From positions 699,501 to 763,500 of the forward strand of contig NZ_CP016757.1 in assembly GCF_001701045.1 (NCBI RefSeq): DNA of 64,000 nt. The letters run 5' to 3'. The position numbers and the translations under genes were made by a program. Shown piece by piece: positions 33,801 to 60,344 of this stretch (position 1 is the first letter of the stretch; each line of letters opens with the position of its first letter). A model generated the notes under the pieces. That model was not told where the DNA came from, did not search any database, and saw only the letters and a program-made list of their open reading frames with translations. Source of the stretch: Cloacibacillus porcorum (GTDB taxonomy: Bacteria > Synergistota > Synergistia > Synergistales > Synergistaceae).

Positions 33801-33958
33801 TTGCGTAATATTTGAGACCCCTGCTATAATCAGTCTGGCAGGGGTTTTTCTTGTGTATGGGGTGCTCTGGGCTGCTCTTGATTTCTCGCTCCTGCTTTTG
33901 TAAATGTGTTACTCAAATTGCTGTTTTGCGTTACGCAATTATTTTTTGAGTTACGCAA
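33801..33958. repeat. Repeated TTACGCAA motifs upstream of integrase
   Basis: TTGCGTAAT at 33801-33809, GTTACTCAA at 33908-33916, GTTACGCAA at 33930-33938 (inside the palindrome TTGCGT-T-ACGCAA at 33926-33938) and GTTACGCAA at 33950-33958. They lie between the tRNA and integrase gene, where integrase arm sites or an excisionase site would be. Confidence 0.55.
33818..33850 (+). terminator. Terminator after tRNA-Ser
   Basis: CCCCTGC and GCAGGGG with a 13-base loop, then TTTTTC. Confidence 0.85.
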
Positions 33959-33971
33959 AGGGGGAGTCGAA

Positions 33972-35159
33972 TTGCTTACGGAGATTTCTATACGGAGTTT
34001 TAAGCCCGGAGAGGTCCGGTATATGCGCGCCGACGGCGGAGGGCTTTATCTTGAGGTGCTGCCGAATGGTTCGCGGTATTGGTGGCTGATTGTTCGCGGG
34101 GCTAACAAGAAAACAAAGAAGTATAAGCTCGGCGATTATCCGGAGGTTGGCATTAAGACGGCCCGCGAGCTGTGTGTTTTGAAGCGGCGCGAGATTGGCC
34201 TGTCTGTGGGCAAGCCGCCGTCTGATTTACGGTTTGAGGAGCTTGCATGGGATTGGTATAACACAAAGATTATGCCGCTGCGTGAGAGTTACCGTAAGGA
34301 CGTCAAGGGACGGCTTGAGAATCATGTATTGCCGCCGTTTATCGGCCGGCTTGCGGCTTCTATCACCGCTTTTGATATTTTGCCGGTGGTGAAGGGATTG
34401 GATAATGCGGGGTTTCATGATTCGGCGCGGAAGATTTTAGGGATTTACGGCCAGATTTTTCGTTACGGGATGCCGCCTATGGGGCCGATTATGGCGGATC
34501 CTACGGCGGGGATCGTGAAGCACCTGGCGCCTAAGAGTAAGAAGCACTTTGCCAGTCTCACGGACAGGCGCGATGTGGCTAAACTTATGAGGGAGATAAC
34601 GATTTATCGCTCCGGACGCGTGCGCTACGCGCTGCTTTTTTCCGTCTATACTTTCTGCCGTCCCGGCGAGGTGGCGGAAGCGCGGTGGTCTGAGATCGAT
34701 TTTACGCGCGCGGAGTGGCGTAAGCCCGGGGAGAAGATGAAGAACGGCGAGCCGCATATTGTGCCTCTTTCCAAGCAGGCGGTAGAGGCGCTTCGCGGCG
34801 AGGAGCGGCTGCTTGCCGCCTGCGGCGTGTCTTCGCCGTATGTGTTCCCTAATACCAGGAATCCGGAGAAGCATATGACTAAGGATACGGTGCGTGTTGC
34901 GCTGCGGTCGATAGGGTACTCGAAGGAGGAGCTGACGAGCCACGGGCTTCGCGCCATGGCGAGCACGCTGCTGAATGAGAGCGGCCTGTGGTCGATAGAC
35001 GCTATAGAATTGCAGCTGGCTCATACGGATAAGGATCATGTGCGCGCGGATTATAATTTCGCCTCGAAGCTGCCGGAGCGGACGCGGATGATGCAGTGGT
35101 GGGCCGATGAGCTGGATCGGCTGCGGAGTAATGTTAAGGAAAAGGTTAAGAAGGATTGA
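33972..35159 (+). CDS. int: Tyrosine-recombinase prophage integrase (P4 type)
   Basis: 395-aa integrase with an N-terminal DUF4102-like domain (RSFKPGEVRYMRADGGGLYLEV), a core-binding domain (~85-185) and a catalytic domain. Catalytic residues: Arg230 (FCRPGEVAEARW), His324/Arg327 (SHGLRAM), His351 (QLAHTDK) and Tyr361 (RADYNF). The TTG at 33972 is chosen because GGGGGAG lies five bases ahead; the frame is open for 22 more codons. It inserts the phage at tRNA-Ser. Part of its 3' end is repeated 1.2 kb downstream. Confidence 0.93.
   Translation: MLTEISIRSFKPGEVRYMRADGGGLYLEVLPNGSRYWWLIVRGANKKTKKYKLGDYPEVGIKTARELCVLKRREIGLSVGKPPSDLRFEELAWDWYNTKIMPLRESYRKDVKGRLENHVLPPFIGRLAASITAFDILPVVKGLDNAGFHDSARKILGIYGQIFRYGMPPMGPIMADPTAGIVKHLAPKSKKHFASLTDRRDVAKLMREITIYRSGRVRYALLFSVYTFCRPGEVAEARWSEIDFTRAEWRKPGEKMKNGEPHIVPLSKQAVEALRGEERLLAACGVSSPYVFPNTRNPEKHMTKDTVRVALRSIGYSKEELTSHGLRAMASTLLNESGLWSIDAIELQLAHTDKDHVRADYNFASKLPERTRMMQWWADELDRLRSNVKEKVKKD
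35080..35126 (+). repeat. 47-bp direct repeat, copy 1 (integrase 3' end)
   Basis: It matches 36310-36356 at 46 of 47 bases. This copy lies within the functional integrase gene. Confidence 0.92.
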
Positions 35160-38258: not shown

Positions 38259-39017
38259 TTATGCCGTCTTCGCCGATTCTATATCTTTGGGACTTTCTTT
38301 CTCAAGCGTTTTTATGCAGCGCTTGAGGATGGATATTACTATGTCTTTTTCATCATCATCAAAGCACCAGGCTGTCTGGTCTAAAAGTTTGTTAAACCGT
38401 GCCAGTTCTTCGATGACTTCTCCTGGCAGAACTTCTGGGCTACCTTGTGATATTGTGTTGGATATAGCTTCCTGTCTCTGGTGGCATTTCTTCATTAAGG
38501 GCATGCCCATTCTCCTTATTTGTTCTCGCTGTTTTATTTCCTCTGGAGAAAGTGTTTTTTCTGGGATGAAACCGCAGAGTAGAGAATATTCGCCAGGGCC
38601 AGGGGCTATTCCCTTATCTAACAGTTCCTCAAGTTTTGGGGAGAGGAGGTTCATTTTTTTTAGTTGTTCTTTTGTTGGTATTTTTATCCCCGCTTCCCAA
38701 TCCCTTACTGTCTCTGGCGATACTCCTATATCTACAGCGAGTTGTTCTATGGTGTTATGAAAAAGTTGGCGGCGCTCTTTTATGACGTCTTTTAGTTCCT
38801 TTTGGTTTGGCAACATTTTCGATGTTTCTCCCATTAGGTATGCGACAGAAACCCCCAAGACCAAAGCAAGCTTTGCGAGATCTTCTGCTCGGGGCATCCG
38901 TTTACCTGTTTCCCAGCGCGATACGGTATCTAAGGAAACGCTTATCTTTTCTGCTAATTCTCCTTGGTTCATTCCGTAACGCTTTCTTGCTTCTCTTATT
39001 TGTTCTCCTACATTCAT
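38259..39017 (-). CDS. Phage repressor with two XRE helix-turn-helix domains
   Basis: 252-aa repressor-like protein. First HTH at ~5-60 (GMNQGELAEKISVSLDTVSRWETGKRMP). A second Cro/C1-like HTH follows at ~80-125 (IEQLAVDIGVSPETVRDWEAGIKIP), which is unusual. The C-terminal half is helical and has no LexA-type Ser/Lys protease motif, so induction is probably not by RecA cleavage. Start at 39017 has AGGTG ahead. It reads away from a Cro-like gene across a divergent promoter region with a 24-bp operator. Confidence 0.88.
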   Translation of the reverse strand: MNVGEQIREARKRYGMNQGELAEKISVSLDTVSRWETGKRMPRAEDLAKLALVLGVSVAYLMGETSKMLPNQKELKDVIKERRQLFHNTIEQLAVDIGVSPETVRDWEAGIKIPTKEQLKKMNLLSPKLEELLDKGIAPGPGEYSLLCGFIPEKTLSPEEIKQREQIRRMGMPLMKKCHQRQEAISNTISQGSPEVLPGEVIEELARFNKLLDQTAWCFDDDEKDIVISILKRCIKTLEKESPKDIESAKTA

Positions 39018-39041
39018 TGTTATCACCTTTTCTGTAATTTA

Positions 39042-39069
39042 ATTCTACCAAATGGCAGGCCTACTTCAA
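39042..39069 (-). promoter_or_regulatory. Repressor-operon promoter
   Basis: On the minus strand, TTGAAG and TAGAAT stand 16 bases apart, 25 bases before the repressor ATG. The operator begins 8 bases behind its -35 box. Confidence 0.6.
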
Positions 39070-39076
39070 TGCGCAC

Positions 39077-39100
39077 TATAGTCTAATTTATTAGACTATA
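39077..39100. promoter_or_regulatory. Phage operator between divergent promoters
   Basis: Perfect inverted repeat: arms TATAGTCTAAT and ATTAGACTATA with a TT spacer. It lies between the -35 boxes of the leftward and rightward promoters, the expected site for repressor and Cro. Confidence 0.82.
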
Positions 39101-39105
39101 TAGCC

Positions 39106-39134
39106 TTGACGGATATAAAAAATCTGTGTATTAT
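39106..39134 (+). promoter_or_regulatory. Early rightward phage promoter
   Basis: TTGACG and TATTAT are 17 bases apart, about 30 bases ahead of the Cro-like gene. Confidence 0.65.
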
Positions 39135-39163
39135 TCGATCATATAGCATAAATAGAGGTGATG

Positions 39164-39421
39164 ATGGTGTCATGTATTAAATTTTATCGCAAAAAAGCAG
39201 GACTTACGCAAGGACAGCTTGCAAAATCTATGGGGGTCTCTCTTGATACAATTTCAAGATACGAGACAAATAAGAGAGAGCCACGTGTTTCTGATTTACG
39301 CCGAATGGCCGATATCCTCGGTTGTACGCCGATTGAGCTTATGATGGAGTCGGAGGCAAACCCTCCTATCCCCCGGAAGGTGGCGAAGATGCGGGGGTCC
39401 GGGATGGCGGCGGTGGCGTAG
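39164..39421 (+). CDS. Cro-like XRE regulator
   Basis: About 85-aa single-domain HTH protein: KKAGLTQGQLAKSMGVSLDTISRYETNKREP (~10-40) is a clear XRE/Cro fold. Several starts are possible (GTG, two ATG, GTG in a row at 39158-39169); the AGAGGTG site best fits 39164 or 39167. As first gene of the rightward early transcript, it probably opposes the two-HTH repressor at the shared operator. Confidence 0.85.
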   Translation: MVSCIKFYRKKAGLTQGQLAKSMGVSLDTISRYETNKREPRVSDLRRMADILGCTPIELMMESEANPPIPRKVAKMRGSGMAAVA

Positions 39422-42066: not shown

Positions 42067-42344
42067 ATGCCGATAGGTAAACGAAGGAAGAAAGGTACAA
42101 CATCGTCCGGCTCCACCGGCGGGGCTGAAAAGGGCGCCAAGCGGATATCAAAACGGGGGGGGCGAGGAAGGAGCCTCCTGTACGGCTGCCTGTGCGGCAT
42201 GATATGTGTCCCGTCGGCTGCTCCAAGTTGCTGTTGGGTGGCACGGAAGACGGCTGCGGTTTTGTCTGCCGTGATTACGGCCAGCTTAAGACGCACGAGG
42301 ACGGCGGTCCTGTGATGAGTGTCAGGTGCGATGACAATTCTTAG
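42067..42344 (+). pseudogene. Cysteine-rich phage gene split at a run of eight G
   Basis: The ATG at 42067 opens a basic N-terminus (MPIGKRRKKGTTSSGS). At the G8 tract (42155-42162) the frame leaves good coding. A -1 shift there continues into ARKEPPVRLPVRHDMCPVGC and CGFVCRDYGQLKTHEDGG, a plausible zinc-binding protein ending at 42344. Without the shift the frame stops at 42315 after unlikely sequence. The cause may be a mutation, phase variation, programmed slippage or a sequencing slip. The 3' part might also start alone at ATG 42204. Confidence 0.6.
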
Positions 42345-43197
42345 GGTGTTCCCCCGTGCGACGTCTTTCACGCCGGTCCCTACGGAAGAGGACAGACATG
42401 TTTTTATCGGTGATCCTCCATTGGATTGTTTTATTCCTGAGGATGTCTCCGAGATCCATGTAAGTGTCTCTTTTAGCTGGGATATCCCTGAGGGCGAACG
42501 TCTTGCGAAAGCATGGGAGGCAAAGAGGATCGCGCCTGTGCATTTAGGCGGTCCCGCCATAAGCGGTTATCCCTCAGGAGACGAGTTTATTCCAGGGCGG
42601 TATCTGCGCCATGGCGTCACTATAACGTCCCGCGGCTGTCCGAATCATTGTTGGTTTTGCATGGTTCCGCGTATAAGTCCCGGCGGGCTGCGTGAATTGG
42701 AGATTAAGCCCGGAAATATCGTCCAGGACGATAATCTGCTGGCGTGCAGCGAGCAGCATGTCCGCGCGGTTTTTAAGATGCTTGAATCTCAGGCGAAGGT
42801 GATCCTCTCCGGAGGGTTGGAGGCGGCCAGATTAAAGCTATGGCATATGCCGCTCTTTGAGGCGGCGAAGGTTAAGGAGGCGTTTTTCGCCTATGACCGC
42901 CCGGAGGAATATGATGCCCTTGTCTACGCCTCATATGTATTACGGTCGTCAAGCTGGTACAGGCCCGGTAAGGCTAGATGTTATATCCTCGTTGGTTTTA
43001 GTGGAGATAGTTGTGAGAAGGCGGAAAAGCGCTGCATCGATGCGCTTAGGCTTGGATTTTATCCATTCGCGATGTTTTATCGCGACCAGGAGGGCCGCCA
43101 GGTGAAGGATGTCGAGTGGCGTCGATTCATGCACACCTGGTGTCGCCCGGCGGCGATCGCAGCTACCGCGAAAAGGCTTGGTATTGGCAGTAAATAG
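42331..43197 (+). CDS. Phage-encoded radical SAM-like protein
   Basis: 288-aa protein with the radical SAM motif CPNHCWFC (CxxxCxxC, ~87-94) in TITSRGCPNHCWFCMVP. These three Cys bind a [4Fe-4S] cluster that splits S-adenosylmethionine. A TIM-barrel-like part follows, with a late Cys pair. Reaction and substrate are unknown. It lies directly before the primase-helicase gene, so DNA or nucleotide modification, or tRNA modification, is possible (inference). ATG at 42331; a GTG four codons upstream is the alternative. It overlaps the end of the previous gene. Confidence 0.82.
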   Translation: MTILRVFPRATSFTPVPTEEDRHVFIGDPPLDCFIPEDVSEIHVSVSFSWDIPEGERLAKAWEAKRIAPVHLGGPAISGYPSGDEFIPGRYLRHGVTITSRGCPNHCWFCMVPRISPGGLRELEIKPGNIVQDDNLLACSEQHVRAVFKMLESQAKVILSGGLEAARLKLWHMPLFEAAKVKEAFFAYDRPEEYDALVYASYVLRSSSWYRPGKARCYILVGFSGDSCEKAEKRCIDALRLGFYPFAMFYRDQEGRQVKDVEWRRFMHTWCRPAAIAATAKRLGIGSK

Positions 43198-43203
43198 AGG
43201 CAG

Positions 43204-45498
43204 GTGAGGGCGCTGGATTACAGCGTAAGCGATATAGAGAGGGATTTTTTGGATTTCCTCGGCTCAGAGGGGATTTATCTCGCGGATAATAAGGGGCTGA
43301 AGATCGACGGCCGCAAGCACCGCGTTACGCTTTCCGGCGACAAGCGCGGCTCTAATAACGGCGAGTATAAGGTCTTTGCCGACGAGTGGTTTCGCGGCTG
43401 GCTGCATAATTGGAAGACGGACGAGTGGTATATGTGGGATCCGCATAAGGACGGAGGCGTCTCTTCCGGCTCTATGTCCGCCGAGGAGAAGCGGGCGCTG
43501 GCTGAGAGGTGGGAGGCGGAGAGGGCCGAGCGTAAGCGGCAGGAGGCTCTCTCCCGCGCCCAGGCTTCGGAGCTCGCACGCCGGAAGTGGGAGGCGTCTA
43601 CACCGGCCGACGTCACGCACGGTTACGCGGCCAAGAAGGGGCTCGGTGATGTTTTTGGAGCGCGCCTGCTGGGCAGCGAGCTTGTTTATCCGCTCTTTGA
43701 CCCCAGCGGCGAGATCGTCAATATCCAGACTATTACCGCGCAGGGTGTGAAGCGTCCGCAGACTGGCGCGCCTATTGCCGGCAATTTTGGCCTGCTTGTC
43801 GCGCGGGGGGAGGTATTTAAAGGGGTAGAAGAGCTTCCCCTTGCGGAGAAAGAGAGCTTTTTTCAGACGGAGCTGCGAAGGCTCACCGCCCGCGTCTGGA
43901 TCGTCGAGGGTTGGGCGACGGGCTGCACCGTAGCGGAGGCCACGGGAGAGAGCATAGTAATTGCCCTTAACTGCGGCAATTTGCTGCCGGTGGTGCAAAA
44001 TGTCCGCCATCTTTTTCCGGAGCGCGAGTTTGTCATAGCGGCGGATAATGACCACCGCTCGCGCGGCAATCCCGGTCTGCACGCGGCGCTGCGGGTTTTT
44101 GAGGAGACCGGCGTCCCCTATGTTTATCCAGATTTTGACGAGGATGACGCAGGTACGGACTGGAATGACTACGCGGCGAAGCACGGCCTTAAAAGATGCC
44201 GCGCTGTGATGCTGCGTAAGCTGGCGGCCTTCAAGGATAAGGGGCTTTATAAGCTGAAGCATTCGGAGCCTCAGTTTGTGGATCTCTCAGAGAGCGGCCG
44301 GCCTTTGGGTACGGTGGAAAATTTGCGGGCGCTTTTAGCCTTCGCGGGCATGTCGGTGGAATATGACGAGATCAAGAAGGAGGAGGTCTTTACGATGCCT
44401 GGGCGTGTCTGGTGCGGCGATAACGCCAAGAACGCCGCGATCGGCGAGATACTCTCTCTCTGTTCGCGCTGGCGGATGCCGAAGAGCGATATTGAACCTC
44501 TCATCTCGAACATCGGCTCGCAGAATATCAGCAATCCCGTCAAGGACTGGATACTCTCCGAGCCCTGGGACGGCATGAATCGTATCCAGAATGTCTATGA
44601 CTCGCTTGTAGAGGAGAAGGATTTTCCGCGCCCCTTCAAAGAGACGCTGGTGCGCCGCTGGCTCATCTCCGGAGTGGCCGCCGTCTTTATGAAGCGCGGC
44701 TTCCGCTGCCGTGGCGTGCTGACCTTCGTCGGCGGACAAGGGATAGGCAAGACGACCTGGTTTCGCACGCTCTTTGGCAGGGATGATTTTTTTTCGGAGG
44801 GTGTCGGCCTCAACCTTAAGGATAAGGACAGCGTAAAGGCCGCCATCTCTGCCTGGGGGGTGGAATACGGCGAGCTGGAGGGGACTTTCAACCGCTCCGA
44901 GCTGCCGATCCTCAAGGCGTTTCTCACTCGCGGTTCGGATAAGATGCGTATGCCCTGGAGCCGCAAGGAGTCGGATTTCCAGCGTCGTACGATTTACGGT
45001 GCGACGGTGAACCAGAGGCAGTTTCTTATCGACGATACGGGCAACGCGCGCTGGTGGTGTATCCCGCTGGCGAGGATCACGGCGCTGGACCGCGGCGAGA
45101 TGCAGCAGATGTGGCGCGAGGTCTATGAGCGCTATTACCTTATGTACCTCAAAGAGCCTAAAAACGAGGATTGTCAATGGTGGCTGACGAAAGAGGAGGA
45201 CGCGCTGCTTGCGGAACGCAACCGCGAGTTCGAGGTTCCCTCCAGCGTCGAGGAGATAATCGCCTCACGCCTTGAGTGGGAATGTATGCGCGAACTGTGG
45301 GAGCTGAAGACGACGACGCAGATCCTGCACGAGTGCGGCTATCCTCCGGGAGACATAAAGACCGGGACTTTGATCAAGGCGGGCAAGGTGCTGGCGAAGC
45401 TCACCGGCGAAACTTCAAAGCCGATGGGGCACGCCAATGCGAGGATGTGGCGCGTGCCGCCAAAGAAGACTGTCTTTGCGGATATTGTCAAATTATGA
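43204..45498 (+). CDS. Phage primase-helicase (Toprim + VirE-like P-loop)
   Basis: 764-aa replication protein. Domains: N-terminal DNA-binding region (~1-140, long Arg/Glu helix at ~95-130), Toprim domain (~225-310, RVWIVEGWATGCTVAEAT and FVIAADND) and a VirE/superfamily-3-like ATPase with Walker A VGGQGIGKTTW (~509-519). It probably primes and unwinds DNA at the phage origin. GTG start behind GAGG. A cluster of TGTTCGC repeats follows directly, which suggests that the origin lies there. Confidence 0.88.
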   Translation: MRALDYSVSDIERDFLDFLGSEGIYLADNKGLKIDGRKHRVTLSGDKRGSNNGEYKVFADEWFRGWLHNWKTDEWYMWDPHKDGGVSSGSMSAEEKRALAERWEAERAERKRQEALSRAQASELARRKWEASTPADVTHGYAAKKGLGDVFGARLLGSELVYPLFDPSGEIVNIQTITAQGVKRPQTGAPIAGNFGLLVARGEVFKGVEELPLAEKESFFQTELRRLTARVWIVEGWATGCTVAEATGESIVIALNCGNLLPVVQNVRHLFPEREFVIAADNDHRSRGNPGLHAALRVFEETGVPYVYPDFDEDDAGTDWNDYAAKHGLKRCRAVMLRKLAAFKDKGLYKLKHSEPQFVDLSESGRPLGTVENLRALLAFAGMSVEYDEIKKEEVFTMPGRVWCGDNAKNAAIGEILSLCSRWRMPKSDIEPLISNIGSQNISNPVKDWILSEPWDGMNRIQNVYDSLVEEKDFPRPFKETLVRRWLISGVAAVFMKRGFRCRGVLTFVGGQGIGKTTWFRTLFGRDDFFSEGVGLNLKDKDSVKAAISAWGVEYGELEGTFNRSELPILKAFLTRGSDKMRMPWSRKESDFQRRTIYGATVNQRQFLIDDTGNARWWCIPLARITALDRGEMQQMWREVYERYYLMYLKEPKNEDCQWWLTKEEDALLAERNREFEVPSSVEEIIASRLEWECMRELWELKTTTQILHECGYPPGDIKTGTLIKAGKVLAKLTGETSKPMGHANARMWRVPPKKTVFADIVKL

Positions 45499-45514
45499 TG
45501 TGAGCACATAAGCC

Positions 45515-45831
45515 GCGAACACTTTAAATAGTAAGTTAAGAATGTTCGCACGAGAAAAGACGGTAATAGCAATGGCGCGCCGCGGGGTGCGCGAGCAGAT
45601 GGATAATCTGTTCGCAAATGTGTTCGCACAAAAAAATCTTTGCTATCAGAGGGGATAACTGTACCCTGCGAACATGTGACACGAAAAAAGCGCTATAAAT
45701 AGAATTTTTTACCTTTTAAATGTTTTTCTAAAATCAAGGGGTTTGTGTGTTCGCAATGTTCGCAGTCAGGTTTTTATCAGCAATGGCAAGGATTGAGGGG
45801 CGCGAACATATTTGCGAGCATATCGCGAACA
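45515..45831. repeat. Iteron-like TGTTCGC array, candidate phage origin
   Basis: Nine exact copies of a 7-mer in a 317-base gap. TGTTCGC at 45543, 45609, 45621, 45748 and 45757; the complement GCGAACA at 45515, 45668, 45802 and 45825; plus a variant GCGAGCA at 45814. Two copies at 45748 and 45757 repeat every nine bases. An AT-rich stretch (45690-45735) lies between the groups, as a melting region would. No gene fits in 45499-45854. Confidence 0.75.
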
Positions 45832-45854
45832 AATAGAGGCGGGGAGGCAAGAAG

Positions 45855-46301
45855 ATGAGCTCATATAAGCACCGGATGGCCGAAGGAGCTATCAAGGATT
45901 TTCCGAAGATCAAGCAGGACTATGACAGCTATAAGCTTATGCTGGACGCCAGGGCGCTTGCCGGCGGCGGCTGTATTTTCGACGAACGGGTGGACGGCGG
46001 CGGAGTTTCCGACAGCGCCGGCGAGAGGTATATGGATCGGTATAACGATCCTGTGCTGCGGAAGCTTCAGGCTCTTGTGGAGGGAATCTATACGGCTTAT
46101 TACGAACTGCCGCCTGCCGAACGCAGAGTGATTGCCTTACGCTACTGGCAAAATCTTGATGTCCCCGATGTCGCACATGAACTTATGTTCAGCGAAAGTA
46201 ATGTTTACAGGTACACCCGCAGCGCGCTCAGCTATCTTTATCGGCAGATTTTAAGCGTTCAGCCATTACTTGAAGACTGGAGAACGGGCGGGTTAAAATG
46301 A
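45855..46301 (+). CDS. Sigma-like late transcription regulator (ArpU/RinA type)
   Basis: 148-aa protein with a sigma-70 region-4-like C-terminus: LPPAERRVIALRYWQNLDVPDVAHELMFSESNVYRYTRSAL (~80-120). Phage proteins of this build (ArpU, RinA) activate the late genes and sit just before terminase, as here. GGGGAGG precedes the ATG. The gap after it contains direct repeats that could be its binding sites. Confidence 0.8.
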   Translation: MSSYKHRMAEGAIKDFPKIKQDYDSYKLMLDARALAGGGCIFDERVDGGGVSDSAGERYMDRYNDPVLRKLQALVEGIYTAYYELPPAERRVIALRYWQNLDVPDVAHELMFSESNVYRYTRSALSYLYRQILSVQPLLEDWRTGGLK

Positions 46302-46314
46302 ACTCCAACCGCTA

Positions 46315-46448
46315 TTGTTGAGAAATTGTTGAGAATTTTTTCTCAAGTTATCCACATTGGTCAAAGTTTTGTGCTGCTGTTATGCCCGCGTTTTTTTGAG
46401 TTCTCTAGTGTGTTTTTCTGTACATTGGTCAAAAAGTCAAAGGTCAAA
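46315..46448. promoter_or_regulatory. Repeats in the late control region
   Basis: TTGTTGAGAA occurs twice (46315-46324, 46326-46335); TTGAGAA-TTTT-TTCTCAA forms a palindrome at 46329-46346. ACATTGGTCAAA occurs at 46354-46365 and 46422-46433, and GTCAAA again at 46436 and 46443. Possible activator sites for the late promoter. Confidence 0.5.
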
Positions 46449-46496: not shown

Positions 46497-46603
46497 TCTC
46501 TATAGTGGCATAAACAGATATGGCGAACAGAGAGCTGCTTCTCATCTGAGAGGTGGCTCTTTTTGTTTGCCTTAGATCATCTTGCAGAAAGGAGGCGGTA
46601 CGG

Positions 46604-47233
46604 ATGGCGCTTAGCGAGATGCAGGAGCGTTTTTGTCAGTTTTATGTCGGTGAATGCCGGGGCAACGGCACTGAGGCAGTCGTCCGCGCCGGGTATACTG
46701 AGAATAGAAGTTCTGCCGCTGTTATTGCCAGCCAGAACTTAAGGAAGCTTAATATTATCAGTCGTATCAAGGATTTAAGACGTGAAGCACTCGAAGCCTC
46801 CGGCTTTGATAAGGAGCGGGTTCGTGAGGCGATAATGCGGCGAATGATGGGGATCGTGAGCACGAGCCTGACGGATATCGTGCATATTTCACCCAGCAGG
46901 GACGATCCTCACCGCAGAGAGATCTTAAAAGAGCTTGCCGAGAAGAACGGCGGCCAGCAGATACTTGATTTCGGCGAGCTGCTTTTTGTGCCGACGACGG
47001 GGCTGACCGATGAGGCGGACGGCGCGATCAAGAAGTTTAAGGCGATTCAGCCGACGGAGCATTCCGACGGCGGTCTTGAGGTGGAGATGCACGACCCCAT
47101 TGCCGCCGCGCGTCTGTTGGCGGAGATATCGGGGCTCAAACAGCCGGATACGGAGGTAAACGTGAATGTCTCTCCGGCGGTGATTTTACAGCAGGTGGAG
47201 GCCCGCCAGGCGGGGGCGAGCGCCAATGGATAA
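46604..47233 (+). CDS. Terminase small subunit
   Basis: 209-aa DNA-recognition subunit of the packaging motor. N-terminal HTH region: LSEMQERFCQFYVGECRGNGTEAVVRAGY and the following NLRKLNIISRIKDLRRE are typical of the terminase_2 family. The ATG at 46604 sits behind AAAGGAGG; the frame is open a little upstream. The end overlaps the large-subunit gene by eight bases. Confidence 0.92.
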   Translation: MALSEMQERFCQFYVGECRGNGTEAVVRAGYTENRSSAAVIASQNLRKLNIISRIKDLRREALEASGFDKERVREAIMRRMMGIVSTSLTDIVHISPSRDDPHRREILKELAEKNGGQQILDFGELLFVPTTGLTDEADGAIKKFKAIQPTEHSDGGLEVEMHDPIAAARLLAEISGLKQPDTEVNVNVSPAVILQQVEARQAGASANG

Positions 47234-48608
47234 CGGTCTTGTAGAACTGGTGGAGCGCTGGCGTGATTCCCCTCGCGATTTTGTGATCGAGTGTCTTGGC
47301 GCAACGCCTACGGAGCAGCAGCGGGCTGTGCTTGATACGCTTGCAAGCCCGGGCGCTAAGATTACGATTCGTTCCGGGCACGGAACTGGAAAGAGTACGC
47401 TGTTTGCCTGGACTGCTTTGTGGGCGCTTTGCTGTTTTTTAGATGTTAAGGTTCCGGTTACGGCTCCTACGGCGCACCAGCTGTCGGATATTTTATGGGC
47501 GGAAATTAAGAAATGGCACGGGAGTATGCTTGAGCCGTGGAAGAGCGCTATTAAGTTTAAAGCAGATAAGATTATTATGGAGAATTCGCCTGGGTTTGTG
47601 GCGGCACGTACCGGAAGGAAGGAAACGCCGGAAGCTTTGCAGGGGTTTCACGCGAAGAATTTAATTTTCCTCATAGATGAAGCGTCCGGCATTCCGGAGC
47701 AGGTTTTTGAGACTGCAAGAGGTTCTCTTTCGACGCCTGGGGCACGTATCTTAATGGCGGCGAATCCTACACGTCTGACTGGATATTTTTACAATTCGCA
47801 TCACAAGAACCGTGACTTATGGTCGCGGTTTGTTTTTTCGTGTATCAACAGTCCCAACGTGGATGCTGAATATGTGAAGCAGATTGCCGAGGAGTACGGG
47901 GAGGACAGCGATATGTACCGCGTGCGCGTGCTGGGGGAGTTTCCGCACGCCTCTGTCTCGCAGTTTATGCCCGGTGACGTCGTAGAGGCAGCGATGGGGA
48001 AGCATCTGCGGGAGGATATGTATGGTTTTGCGCCCGTCGTCATCGGCGTCGATGTGGCGATGTTTGGCGGCGACCGCAGCGTTATCATGCTTCGCCAGGG
48101 GTTATATTCAAATATTCTCTATCAGGTGCGTGGGAATACGCCGGAGACGCTGGCGGCTCATGCGGCCAGGCTATATGACGAGCACAAGGCCGACGCGCTC
48201 ATCGTGGACGCGACTGGCGTTGGCGAGGCGGTTATGTCGAGCCTCCGTCTGATGAACCGCTCTCCCATCGCCTTTTACGCCGGCGAGAAGTCTCTTTTGC
48301 CGAACTGTGTGAACCGGCGCGCGGAGGTTTGGTACAAGATGCGCGAGTGGTTTAAGTTGGGCGGGGCTATACCGGATAATTCGGATTTACGCGACGACCT
48401 GGTCGGCCCGGAGTTTCAGTACACCGCCGGCAGCAGCAAGATTCAGCTGGAACGCAAGCAGGATATGGCGAAGCGCGGACTTGCCAGTCCGGATCTTGCC
48501 GACGCGCTGGCGATAACTTTTGCCGCCGACGTGCTGCCCAGGTCGTCGCACAGCGGCACCGGAGACGGCGGCGGGTGGGCCGACGATGATTATGACGTTT
48601 ACAGTTAG
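47226..48608 (+). CDS. terL: Terminase large subunit
   Basis: 460-aa packaging ATPase and nuclease. Walker A SGHGTGKST (~50-58), Walker B with LIFLIDEASG (Asp151, Glu152), and an RNase H-like nuclease with Asp276 (IGVDVAMFGGD), Asp328 (LIVDATGVG) and late SPDLADALAI. It cuts and pumps phage DNA into the head through the portal encoded downstream. Length and order are normal. Confidence 0.96.
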   Translation: MDNGLVELVERWRDSPRDFVIECLGATPTEQQRAVLDTLASPGAKITIRSGHGTGKSTLFAWTALWALCCFLDVKVPVTAPTAHQLSDILWAEIKKWHGSMLEPWKSAIKFKADKIIMENSPGFVAARTGRKETPEALQGFHAKNLIFLIDEASGIPEQVFETARGSLSTPGARILMAANPTRLTGYFYNSHHKNRDLWSRFVFSCINSPNVDAEYVKQIAEEYGEDSDMYRVRVLGEFPHASVSQFMPGDVVEAAMGKHLREDMYGFAPVVIGVDVAMFGGDRSVIMLRQGLYSNILYQVRGNTPETLAAHAARLYDEHKADALIVDATGVGEAVMSSLRLMNRSPIAFYAGEKSLLPNCVNRRAEVWYKMREWFKLGGAIPDNSDLRDDLVGPEFQYTAGSSKIQLERKQDMAKRGLASPDLADALAITFAADVLPRSSHSGTGDGGGWADDDYDVYS

Positions 48609-49033: not shown

Positions 49034-49045
49034 CGGTGGTGTGTG

Positions 49046-50713
49046 ATGGAGTATACGGCGGAGCTTAGGAAGGGGCTGGATCAGCGGCGAGCGGCGCTGC
49101 GGAATGACGCCTCTTATATTGAACCTCTCTGGCAGGAGCTGCGGGATTATATTCATCCCTTTCGCGGGCGTTTCGCCGGCGAGAAGAATGACAGGCTGCC
49201 GGATATGCTTAAGGTGCTCTCTTCGGTTCCCGGGAAGGCGCGTTCCACGCTGGTAGCAGGAATGCAGTCCGGTCTTACTTCGCCCTCGCGGCAGTGGTTT
49301 ATGCTTTCCACGCATAACGCCGAGCTCTCGGACGACTGGGAGGTGCGCTGCTGGCTGGATGATGTGCACGACCGCATGATGCGCGTGATGCAGGGGAGTA
49401 ATTTTTATCACGCGCTGCATAATGTCTATGAGGAGCTGGTCACTTTCGGCACCGGCGTGATGGTTATTGTGCCGGATTATAGTAATGTGATCCGCTGTAC
49501 GACGCTTACGTGCGGCCGCTATTGGCTGGGCGCCTCGAACGGTTATGACATCGACTGTATTTATCGGGATTTCGACCTGACGGCGAAGCAGATCGTCTCT
49601 ATGTTTGGTGAGAAGAATGTCTCGGACGGCGTAAGGCTGGCGGCTGTGAGCAGCCCTTTTACCCGTTTTGAGGTGCATCAGGCGATTGAGCCGGATTATG
49701 AGAGGGTCACGCGTATGCCGTTCCGCTCCTGTTATTGGGAGAGCGGCGGCGACGCGGAGCGGGTGCTTTCTGTGCGCGGTTATCATGGTTTTCCCGCGAT
49801 GACTCCGCGCTGGCACTGTATTGACAACGATGTTTATGGTTACGGCCCGGGGGCGGAGGCTCTGCCGGACGCAAAGGAGCTGCGGATTCAGATCCGCGAC
49901 CGGGCGGTGGCGATCCGCAAGCAGGTGGCCCCGCCTCTGGTGGCTCCGGAGGGGCTGCGCCGTTCGGGGGTGCGTTCGATGCCGAACGGGATCACTTATG
50001 TGCCGGACGGGCAGATGCAGCAGATTCAGCAGCTGTATAATGTTCAGCTGAATTTGCCCGGGCTGCAGCAGATTATTCAGGAGACGGCGGATTCGATTCG
50101 TTCGACGATGTACGCGGATCTTTTTCTTATGCTGCAGCAGTCCGGCGGTCCGCAGATGACGGCCAGGGAGATCATCGAGCGCCACGAGGAGAAGATGCTG
50201 GTGCTGGGCCCGGTGCTGGGCAGGCTTGAGAGGGAGCTGCTTTCCCCCGCCATTGAACGTATTTACAGCGTCATGTATGAGGCGGGGCTTATTCCCGAAG
50301 CTCCCGAAGCTTTGCGCGGCACGACGGATATAAATATAGAGTTTGTCTCTATTTTGGCGCAGGCCCAGAAGATGCAGGGGATGAAGCCAATCGAGCAGAG
50401 TGTGTCGTTTATCGGTTCGCTGGCCGCCTCGTTCCCAGAAGCGGCGGACGCTCTGGATGTAGATGCAGGTATCCGCGAGTATTGTAAGTTGTCGGGCGCT
50501 CCCGCCAAGCTGCTGCGCGATCCCAGGGCGGTGGAGGAGATACGGGCCCGCCGCGCGCAGGCGGCCCGTGAGCAGGAGCAGTTGGCGCAGATGCAGGCGG
50601 CTATCCAGAGCGGACAGCAGGCGGCCCAGGGCGCGGAGGCGCTGGCGAATACGGATGTGAGGCCCGGCTCGGCGCTTTCGGCGGTCGGCGATCTGCTTAG
50701 GAACGGGATGTGA
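49046..50713 (+). CDS. Portal / head-tail connector protein (podovirus type)
   Basis: 555-aa head-to-tail connecting protein, the ring through which DNA enters the capsid. The segments IEPLWQELRDYIHPFRGRF, GMQSGLTSPSRQWF and YGYGPGAEALPDAKELR match the T7-like/BPP-1-like connector family. A long Gln/Ala-rich helix closes the C-terminus. It marks the phage as a short-tailed type. Confidence 0.93.
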   Translation: MEYTAELRKGLDQRRAALRNDASYIEPLWQELRDYIHPFRGRFAGEKNDRLPDMLKVLSSVPGKARSTLVAGMQSGLTSPSRQWFMLSTHNAELSDDWEVRCWLDDVHDRMMRVMQGSNFYHALHNVYEELVTFGTGVMVIVPDYSNVIRCTTLTCGRYWLGASNGYDIDCIYRDFDLTAKQIVSMFGEKNVSDGVRLAAVSSPFTRFEVHQAIEPDYERVTRMPFRSCYWESGGDAERVLSVRGYHGFPAMTPRWHCIDNDVYGYGPGAEALPDAKELRIQIRDRAVAIRKQVAPPLVAPEGLRRSGVRSMPNGITYVPDGQMQQIQQLYNVQLNLPGLQQIIQETADSIRSTMYADLFLMLQQSGGPQMTAREIIERHEEKMLVLGPVLGRLERELLSPAIERIYSVMYEAGLIPEAPEALRGTTDINIEFVSILAQAQKMQGMKPIEQSVSFIGSLAASFPEAADALDVDAGIREYCKLSGAPAKLLRDPRAVEEIRARRAQAAREQEQLAQMQAAIQSGQQAAQGAEALANTDVRPGSALSAVGDLLRNGM

Positions 50714-59513: not shown

Positions 59514-60344
59514 TTACGTCCTACTCCTAAAACTGCCGTTTCCGCTATACGCCTCCTTATACTGTTTCGGCGTCATGTATCCCAAAGCATAGGCCGGACG
59601 CTCTTCATTGAAGAATTTTATGTATTCCTCTATCTCCCGCTCTATGTTTTCTTTGCCTGTTACATGAAAGTCTGTAAACAGCTCCGCTTTCAGCCAGCCG
59701 TTTATCGCTTCCATCGCCGCATTGTCCGTAGGAGTTCCGCTTCTGGACATGGAGTGGGCTATATGGTTCAGTTCCAAGATGTCGTTGTATTTCTTGGAGG
59801 CGTATACCGCGCCCTGGTCTGTGTGCAGTATCGTCTGCCATTCCGTTTTTTTATCTTTATTCATTATCAGTCCTTCCAGCCCGTCTATGTATGTCATTCT
59901 GTCTCCGCGCCTTGAAGACAACGCATGGCTTACTATTTCGTTGTTCCATAGGTCCATATACAGTGTCAGCTCATAGTACGTACCTTTGAAGCAGAATGCC
60001 GTCATATCGCTCGCTATGTACTGCATCGGTGAGTATACCGGCAGGCCTGCAAGAAGCAGGTTGGGGAATAATCTGTACGGATTGCCTGGTTTTTTATAAC
60101 GGTAGTGTTTTGCCTTGCTCTTTATACCGGCAGCCCTGCAACATTTATAGGCGTACGGATCTGAATGGACTATTCCGGTGTCAAGGCGTATCTTCGCGTT
60201 AAGCCATCTGTATCCGTGCGACGGATATCTTTTATGATATTCCATAAAGAGCATTACGCTTCTAGCAAAATCCCTCGCTCTTTTGGACGGTTCAAACAGG
60301 CTGCGTTTCCAGTTATAGAAGCTGCTTCTGGGAATCCCCGTCAC
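59514..60344 (-). CDS. IS3-family transposase OrfB
   Basis: 276-aa integrase-core transposase. DDE residues: Asp in YIASDMTAFCF, Asp in HTDQGAVYASKKY and Glu in AAMEAINGWLKAEL. The frame runs upstream to about 60398, overlapping orfA, and the family usually makes OrfAB by -1 frameshift. No defect seen, so the element may be active. Confidence 0.92.
   Translation of the reverse strand: MTGIPRSSFYNWKRSLFEPSKRARDFARSVMLFMEYHKRYPSHGYRWLNAKIRLDTGIVHSDPYAYKCCRAAGIKSKAKHYRYKKPGNPYRLFPNLLLAGLPVYSPMQYIASDMTAFCFKGTYYELTLYMDLWNNEIVSHALSSRRGDRMTYIDGLEGLIMNKDKKTEWQTILHTDQGAVYASKKYNDILELNHIAHSMSRSGTPTDNAAMEAINGWLKAELFTDFHVTGKENIEREIEEYIKFFNEERPAYALGYMTPKQYKEAYSGNGSFRSRT

What the first reader, a model, noticed from the sequence alone, without database searches (positions are those of the whole stretch)
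45499..45854. Iteron-like array behind the primase-helicase: candidate phage origin
Nine exact TGTTCGC/GCGAACA copies and one variant occur within 317 bases, some with 9-base spacing, around an AT-rich block. The array directly follows the replication gene. This matches how iteron origins are built. The half-site also resembles a Gram-positive LexA half-box, but I do not see the CGAAC-N4-GTTCG pairing.
Basis: partly seen in the sequence, partly recalled or inferred. Interest (0 to 1): 0.75.

Follow-up and report, generated by a model that had tools for sequence, protein, structure and literature searches.

The report
P4-type replication origin in a prophage
Just behind its DNA-copying enzyme gene, this dormant phage carries a cluster of short repeated DNA words that is most likely where copying of the phage starts, and related phages keep the same layout but swap the word in step with one amino acid of the enzyme's DNA-reading tip.

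Summary
In detail: nine exact TGTTCGC words (plus two one-mismatch copies) lie at 45515-45831, against a maximum of 4 in 2000 shuffles. They form two sets around an AT-rich block (45680-45749, 28% GC), 17 nt after the stop of a Toprim/VapE-type (SF3) primase-helicase. This is the layout of P4 and PICI/SaPI origins; P4's own annotated repeat is TGTTCACC. Related phages keep the array in the same place but change the word: TGTTCGC, TGCTCGC, TGTCCGC, TGTCAGCC, TGTTCACT and others. In 155 primase-helicase loci, 66 have at least 5 copies of one 7-mer after the stop, against 22 of 2010 control windows. Among 13 relatives, exactly one of 707 protein columns predicts the word class. It is the wing residue of the C-terminal winged helix (window N745): Asn gives TC, Arg gives CC, Gly gives CA. 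A fourteenth protein, fetched after the rule was fixed, obeyed it. The downstream sigma-like gene is not constant, and LexA and repressor-operator readings fail. Best reading: a P4/PICI-style origin on a complete prophage, read by the primase-helicase itself. No binding or replication was measured.

The parts
43204..45498 (+). Primase-helicase gene (GTG start, 764 aa): Toprim_3 primase domain (231-328), VapE-like SF3 helicase (454-677), C-terminal winged-helix domain
   Evidence: AlphaFold2 model pLDDT 85; best PDB fold match PriRep1 with dsDNA 7pds, E 7e-18
45232..45462 (+). Coding region of the C-terminal winged-helix domain (about residues 677-753), proposed origin-binding domain
   Evidence: helices 681-689, 704-710, 720-734 and wing strands 739-741/746-751 in the model; covariation with the repeat word
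45436..45438 (+). Codon of wing residue N745, the only one of 707 aligned columns that perfectly predicts the word class among 13 relatives
   Evidence: later case L295
45499..45854 (.). Proposed replication origin: two iteron sets around an AT-rich block, between primase-helicase and sigma-like gene
   Evidence: conserved layout in relatives
45515..45521 (-). iteron TGTTCGC
45543..45549 (+). iteron TGTTCGC
45591..45597 (-). variant iteron TGCTCGC (exact TGTTCGC at the same place in L006 and L007)
45609..45615 (+). iteron TGTTCGC (pair with the next, 12 apart)
45621..45627 (+). iteron TGTTCGC
45668..45674 (-). iteron TGTTCGC
45680..45749 (.). AT-rich block (28% GC), proposed melting site; its core CTTTTAAATGTTTTTCTAAAA is strongly conserved in L006/L007
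45748..45754 (+). iteron TGTTCGC (pair with the next, 9 apart; a closely spaced direct pair sits here in all six aligned relatives)
45757..45763 (+). iteron TGTTCGC
45802..45808 (-). iteron TGTTCGC
45814..45820 (-). variant iteron TGCTCGC (exact in L006, L007)
45825..45831 (-). iteron TGTTCGC
45561..45575 (-). second conserved element (reads CCATTGCTATTACCG); similar CCTTGATATGACTGG-like copies at the same place in L008-L010 although their iteron word differs; role unknown
45640..45665 (+). second element, forward copy (TTGCTATCAGAGGGGATAACTGTACC)
45775..45791 (-). second element, probable third copy (CCTTGCCATTGCTGATA)
   Evidence: sequence, alignment

Best explanation
The array is the replication origin of this prophage and works like the P4 and PICI/SaPI origins. 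The C-terminal winged helix of the phage's own Toprim/VapE-type primase-helicase binds the TGTTCGC words in the two flanking sets. The protein assembles there as a helicase, melts the AT-rich block between the sets, and its primase domain starts synthesis. The word's start (mostly TGT) is common to relatives; its variable half is read, at least partly, by the wing around N745, so relatives with another wing residue carry another word. Shown by sequence: the array, its layout, its conserved place behind the primase-helicase gene, and the one-column covariation. Inferred: binding, hexamer assembly, melting and initiation.
For: (1) Array real, found once in the window, directly 3' of the gene; genome-wide, close TGTTCGC pairs occur only here plus one isolated pair elsewhere. 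(2) Two iteron sets flank an AT-rich block, the organisation described for PICI origins, which lie immediately 3' of the replication initiation gene (PMC6092414); [quoted passage not shown] (3) Positive control: the same scan on P4 finds GTGAACA x7 right after the alpha gene; P4's annotated type 1 repeats read TGTTCACC, with a 9-spaced pair as here. (4) Relatives keep the place and change the word as a set; 66 of 155 primase-helicase loci against 22 of 2010 control windows. (5) Wing code: Asn gives TC (window, L006-L008), Arg gives CC (L009, L011, L093, L095, L189), Gly gives CA (L010, L051, L094, L097); the only perfect column of 707; 7 of 1260 block-preserving relabelings do as well. L295, fetched later, obeys: Arg, TGGTCCGCC. 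L008 and L009 are 99% alike in the helicase but 78% in the C-terminus and differ in word. (6) Best PDB fold match is PriRep1 with dsDNA; SaPI5 PriRep1 is the SaPI protein of that name (PMC10516667).
Against: No binding or replication data. 89 of 155 loci, mostly distant lineages, lack a countable array there, and the lytic relatives ep3, KA2-1 and Mano have none after the gene. Word classes were defined after seeing 11 of the 13 cases; L031 (Gly) has a degenerate word GTC[A/T/G]G. The C-terminal domain alone gives only weak winged-helix matches and no Pfam match. In the L008/L009 contrast the linked downstream gene differs as well. The partial Mantel test on the whole C-terminus is weak (r 0.15, p 0.03).
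Confidence: 0.86

Rival explanations
1. The array is a regulatory region of the late genes: the words are operators for the phage's sigma-like/ArpU-like protein encoded next to it (45855-46301) or for another phage regulator.
For: The array lies between the early and late gene blocks, upstream of the sigma70-r4-like gene; a promoter-like site lies at 45676-45705.
Against: Arrays persist when that gene is absent or different: transposase in L011, other genes in L013, L053, L096/L098/L131, L195, L203. The word tracks a residue of the primase-helicase across these backgrounds. The promoter count is at chance (3 found, 1.7 expected). Words in both orientations on both sides of an AT-rich block are not operator-like.
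Confidence: 0.06
2. The array is a centromere-like or packaging-related site (partition, or terminase recognition next to the terminase genes).
For: Repeat clusters can serve such roles; terminase genes start 0.7 kb downstream (46553 on).
Against: No partition gene was recognised among the proteins scanned. In other relatives the gene after the array is not a terminase. The link is to the primase-helicase, and P4's equivalent site is annotated as a cis-required replication region.
Confidence: 0.03
3. The words are SOS (LexA) half-sites or operators of the phage CI-type repressor.
For: GAACA/TGTTC resembles Gram-positive LexA half-boxes.
Against: No CGAAC-N4-GTTCG in the array even with one mismatch. 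In the host genome the pattern has 3 places (each found on both strands), fewer than its read-backwards control, which has 7. No TGTTCGC lies near the repressor/cro genes 38259-39421. The word differs in relatives.
Confidence: 0.02

Closest known systems
Phage P4 alpha protein with ori and crr
   Same: Toprim primase and helicase in one protein; crr lies directly behind the alpha gene; 8-nt type 1 repeats TGTTCACC in both orientations, including a 9-spaced pair. The window word TGTTCGC shares TGTTC.
   Different: P4 alpha has Zn_Ribbon_Prim, D5_N and Pox_D5 domains, none matched by the window protein, which has VapE-like instead. P4 has a separate ori plus crr; only one array is found here. 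P4 is a satellite, this is a complete prophage.
SaPI/PICI pri-rep-ori replicons (including PriRep1)
   Same: Origin immediately 3' of the initiator gene, two iteron sets flanking an AT-rich region, C-terminal DNA-binding domain (PMC6092414, PMC7581432). Best structural match is PriRep1.
   Different: PICIs are phage-dependent islands; this element carries its own terminase, portal and tail genes. [quoted passage not shown] here and in many viral contigs it sits on phages.
SCCmec Cch2 and its putative origin
   Same: Self-loading helicase whose C-terminal domain binds short repeats downstream of its own gene (PMC7581432).
   Different: Only three AAGTG iterons, separate primase-polymerase, different element type.
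Toprim plus RecA-like (AAA_25) primase-helicases with a downstream array (L019-L029 and others)
   Same: Same place and kind of array (words such as TTGCACG, TTGTCGT, TTGTCAG), same Toprim domain.
   Different: Unrelated helicase fold and different C-terminal HTH; likely a parallel case.

Membership tests
PICI/SaPI-type origin (initiator gene followed by ori) | origin region immediately 3' of the initiator gene | tested here: met
   array starts 17 nt after the stop; same in relatives
[quoted passage not shown]
   criterion from PMC6092414
PICI/SaPI-type origin (initiator gene followed by ori) | initiator binds the iterons through its C-terminal domain | tested here: inconclusive
   covariation at one wing residue supports it; binding not measured
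PICI/SaPI-type origin (initiator gene followed by ori) | initiator plus ori drive autonomous replication | not testable with these tools
   needs a plasmid replication assay
PICI element as a whole | satellite that lacks most capsid and tail genes of its own | tested here: not met
   terminase small and large subunits and head-tail connector/portal, tail-region ORFs and SLT transglycosylase
P4 alpha protein family | Zn_Ribbon_Prim, D5_N and Pox_D5 (origin-binding) domains | tested here: not met
   P4 alpha matches them, window protein matches only Toprim_3 and VapE-like
P4-type iteron | short (about 8-nt) word of the TGTTCACC kind, in both orientations, partly 9 apart | tested here: met
   met in form, with a related but different word: TGTTCGC(A), both orientations, one 9-spaced pair
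Plasmid iteron origins (Rep with long direct iterons) | direct repeats of about 18-22 bp at helical spacing and a plasmid-type Rep gene | tested here: not met
   7-9 nt words in both orientations, irregular spacing; adjacent replication gene is VapE-type
LexA/SOS box | palindrome CGAAC-N4-GTTCG | tested here: not met
Repressor (CI) operators | word present in the repressor/cro intergenic region | tested here: not met
   no TGTTCGC at 38-40 kb

The most novel reading that the evidence does not exclude
Phages of this kind carry an evolvable origin code: a fixed start of the word plus a variable half read by a few wing residues of the primase-helicase C-terminus, so that one residue change (Asn, Arg or Gly at the N745 position) goes with wholesale replacement of the word in the array. 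This would insulate co-resident prophages and satellites from each other: genome G169 holds two such genes with different words (L006, L031), and the window's own genome holds a second Toprim-type gene whose downstream word is TGTCCCG (L296).
Probability: 0.45. Interest if true: 0.75.

Novelty: new variant of a known kind. Interest (0 to 1): 0.6.

Why it matters
It puts a P4/PICI-style origin, described as unique to those islands, on complete phages of a phylum (Synergistota) with little phage biology. It gives a way to find phage origins in raw sequence: look behind the primase-helicase gene for a multiply repeated word. The one-residue covariation makes a specific protein-DNA recognition rule testable with natural proteins and natural DNA, and suggests how phage replicons become mutually exclusive or compatible.

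Tried and rejected
Single-protein scans of genome contigs and viral contigs found no relatives; alignments did. GC skew was uninformative: positive across nearly the whole prophage with no change of sign at the array. Foldseek with the C-terminal domain alone gave only weak winged-helix matches (best E 0.14). The profile search of the C-terminal domain against PDB sequences returned WD40/designed-repeat hits with no separate stretch passing, judged artefacts. A C-terminal alignment of 12 rows was too variable for a collection scan. Whole-domain partial Mantel was weak, because the signal is local to the wing. Promoter and terminator scans were at chance. The LexA reading was rejected. Lytic jilinvirus-type relatives were checked and have no array behind the gene. 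The SaPI helicase structure paper (PMC9371898) was not in the library. From memory only, not verified here (search empty): Streptococcus thermophilus phage Sfi21 has a replication origin near its primase gene.

Full report
WHAT IS THERE. The window is G000:C1:699501-763500 of a 3.585-Mb single-contig genome. The phylum is Synergistota: relatives fetched by name include Fretibacterium fastidiosum, Candidatus Caccocola and Synergistaceae MAGs. The region is a complete-looking prophage: tyrosine integrase 33906-35159, HTH repressor 38259-39026(-) and a Cro-like gene 39158-39421, primase-helicase 43204-45498, sigma70-r4/ArpU-like gene 45855-46301, terminase 46553-48608, head-tail connector/portal 49043-50713, then tail-region ORFs and an SLT transglycosylase. 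The array lies between primase-helicase and sigma-like gene.

THE OBSERVATION. Nine exact TGTTCGC words and two one-mismatch copies occupy 45515-45831. The best 7-mer count of 9 compares with at most 4 in 2000 dinucleotide shuffles, and no window elsewhere in the 64 kb exceeds 4 once windows overlapping the array are set aside. The words run in both orientations, in two sets around a 28% GC block. In the host genome, close pairs of TGTTCGC occur at this locus and at one other place only.

THE PROTEIN NEXT DOOR. The 764-aa protein has Toprim_3 and VapE-like domains. Its AlphaFold2 model (mean pLDDT 85) ends in a winged-helix topology: helices 681-689, 704-710 and 720-734, then a wing made of strands 739-741 and 746-751. 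The best PDB fold match of the whole model is PriRep1 bound to dsDNA (7pds, E 7e-18). SaPI5 PriRep1 is named in PMC10516667. The C-terminal part alone gives only weak winged-helix matches, so the domain call rests on topology.

RELATIVES KEEP THE PLACE BUT CHANGE THE WORD. Phylum relatives with 86% to 41% identity all have an array in the same place: TGTTCGC in L006 and L007, TGCTCGC in L008, TGTCCGC in L009, CTGTCAGCC in L010, TTTGTCCGCC in L011. The layout is collinear: single inverted word, direct pair 12 apart, AT-rich block, direct pair 9 apart, inverted cluster. Across 155 primase-helicase loci, 66 have at least 5 copies of one 7-mer in the 450 nt after the stop, against 22 of 2010 control windows from the same loci (the loci are partly related, so the p-value is not literal). 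The array is found with several initiator types: Toprim plus VapE-like, BT4734-like plus VapE-like (L044), Toprim plus RecA-like AAA_25 (L019, L014, L069), and Prim-Pol plus AAA_25 (L089). Phage P4, used as positive control, gives GTGAACA x7 directly behind alpha; its annotated type 1 repeats read TGTTCACC.

THE WING CODE. In relatives whose wing reads G-[K/H/R/A]-x-X-x-[R/K], residue X tracks two bases of the word. Asn goes with TC (window, L006, L007, L008), Arg with CC (L009, L011, L093, L095, L189), Gly with CA (L010, L051, L094, L097). Of 707 aligned columns of the whole protein, only this one predicts the class perfectly (the script's '748' is offset, the residue is N745 of the window protein, codon 45436-45438). 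None of 3000 random relabelings gives such a three-type column. When close relatives are kept together as blocks, 7 of 1260 do, so about 0.006. The contrasts cut across the tree: L008 and L009 are 99% identical in the helicase but differ in wing and word; L011 and L051 (68% overall) differ in both; L093, L094 and L097 likewise. The rule was first seen in 11 cases. L095 and L189 were read afterwards and agree, and L295, fetched after the rule was fixed, agrees (Arg; TGGTCCGCC). L031 (Gly, GTC[A/T/G]G) agrees only in part, and L013 has a wing of another length and another word.

RIVALS. The sigma-like neighbour is not the constant partner: the array persists next to a transposase (L011), an unrelated gene (L013), tail-protein-like genes (L096, L098, L131) and others. 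LexA boxes are absent. The word does not occur at the repressor/cro region. Promoter-like sites are at chance.

COMPARISON. [quoted passage not shown] PMC7581432 reports that SaPI Rep recognises a downstream origin with its C-terminal domain and shows that the Cch2 C-terminal domain binds its repeats. The window feature meets the layout criteria. The element is not a PICI (full structural genes), and the protein is not in the P4 alpha domain family (no Zn_Ribbon_Prim, D5_N or Pox_D5). So it works like a P4/PICI origin, as a new variant on a complete phage.

LIMITS. Nothing was measured. Distant lineages, including lytic jilinvirus-type phages, lack a countable array behind the gene. Word alignment between relatives was done by eye on the GT core. 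The code covers one wing geometry only. A second conserved element (about CCTTGNTATNACTGG, two to three copies, conserved in L006-L010 although the iteron word differs) has no assigned function.

Noticed in passing
window 46348-46356 (+): The only exact DnaA-box consensus TTATCCACA in the window, in the intergenic stretch between the sigma-like gene and terminase small subunit; near-matches in the window are at chance.
   Followed up: partly
window 59514-60344 (-): IS3-type transposase (rve domains) lying inside the prophage tail region.
   Followed up: partly
window 42319-43197 (+): Radical-SAM-like phage gene (phrog_9298) directly upstream of the primase-helicase; function unknown.
   Followed up: no
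L296 (G000:C1:2335000-2339500): The same host genome has a second Toprim-type primase-helicase gene followed by a different word (TGTCCCG x5), so two co-resident elements would have different origin words.
   Followed up: partly
L006 and L031 (both genome G169): Two primase-helicase genes in one genome with different words, TGTTCGC and AGGTGTC.
   Followed up: partly
L202-L224 (viral contigs): A family with word GTTGCACT; L203, with His instead of Asn in the wing (KRSHG against RRSNG/RRTNG), has GTTGCACC, a possible second instance of wing-word covariation.
   Followed up: partly
L058 about +983 and L060 about +529 after the stop: Second repeat clusters (GTGTAAC x9, AACCTTG x8) further downstream of the primase-helicase.
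   Followed up: no
L061-L063, about 270-320 nt upstream of the gene start: Repeat clusters (CTGTAAC, 7-8 copies) in front of, rather than behind, the primase-helicase gene.
   Followed up: no
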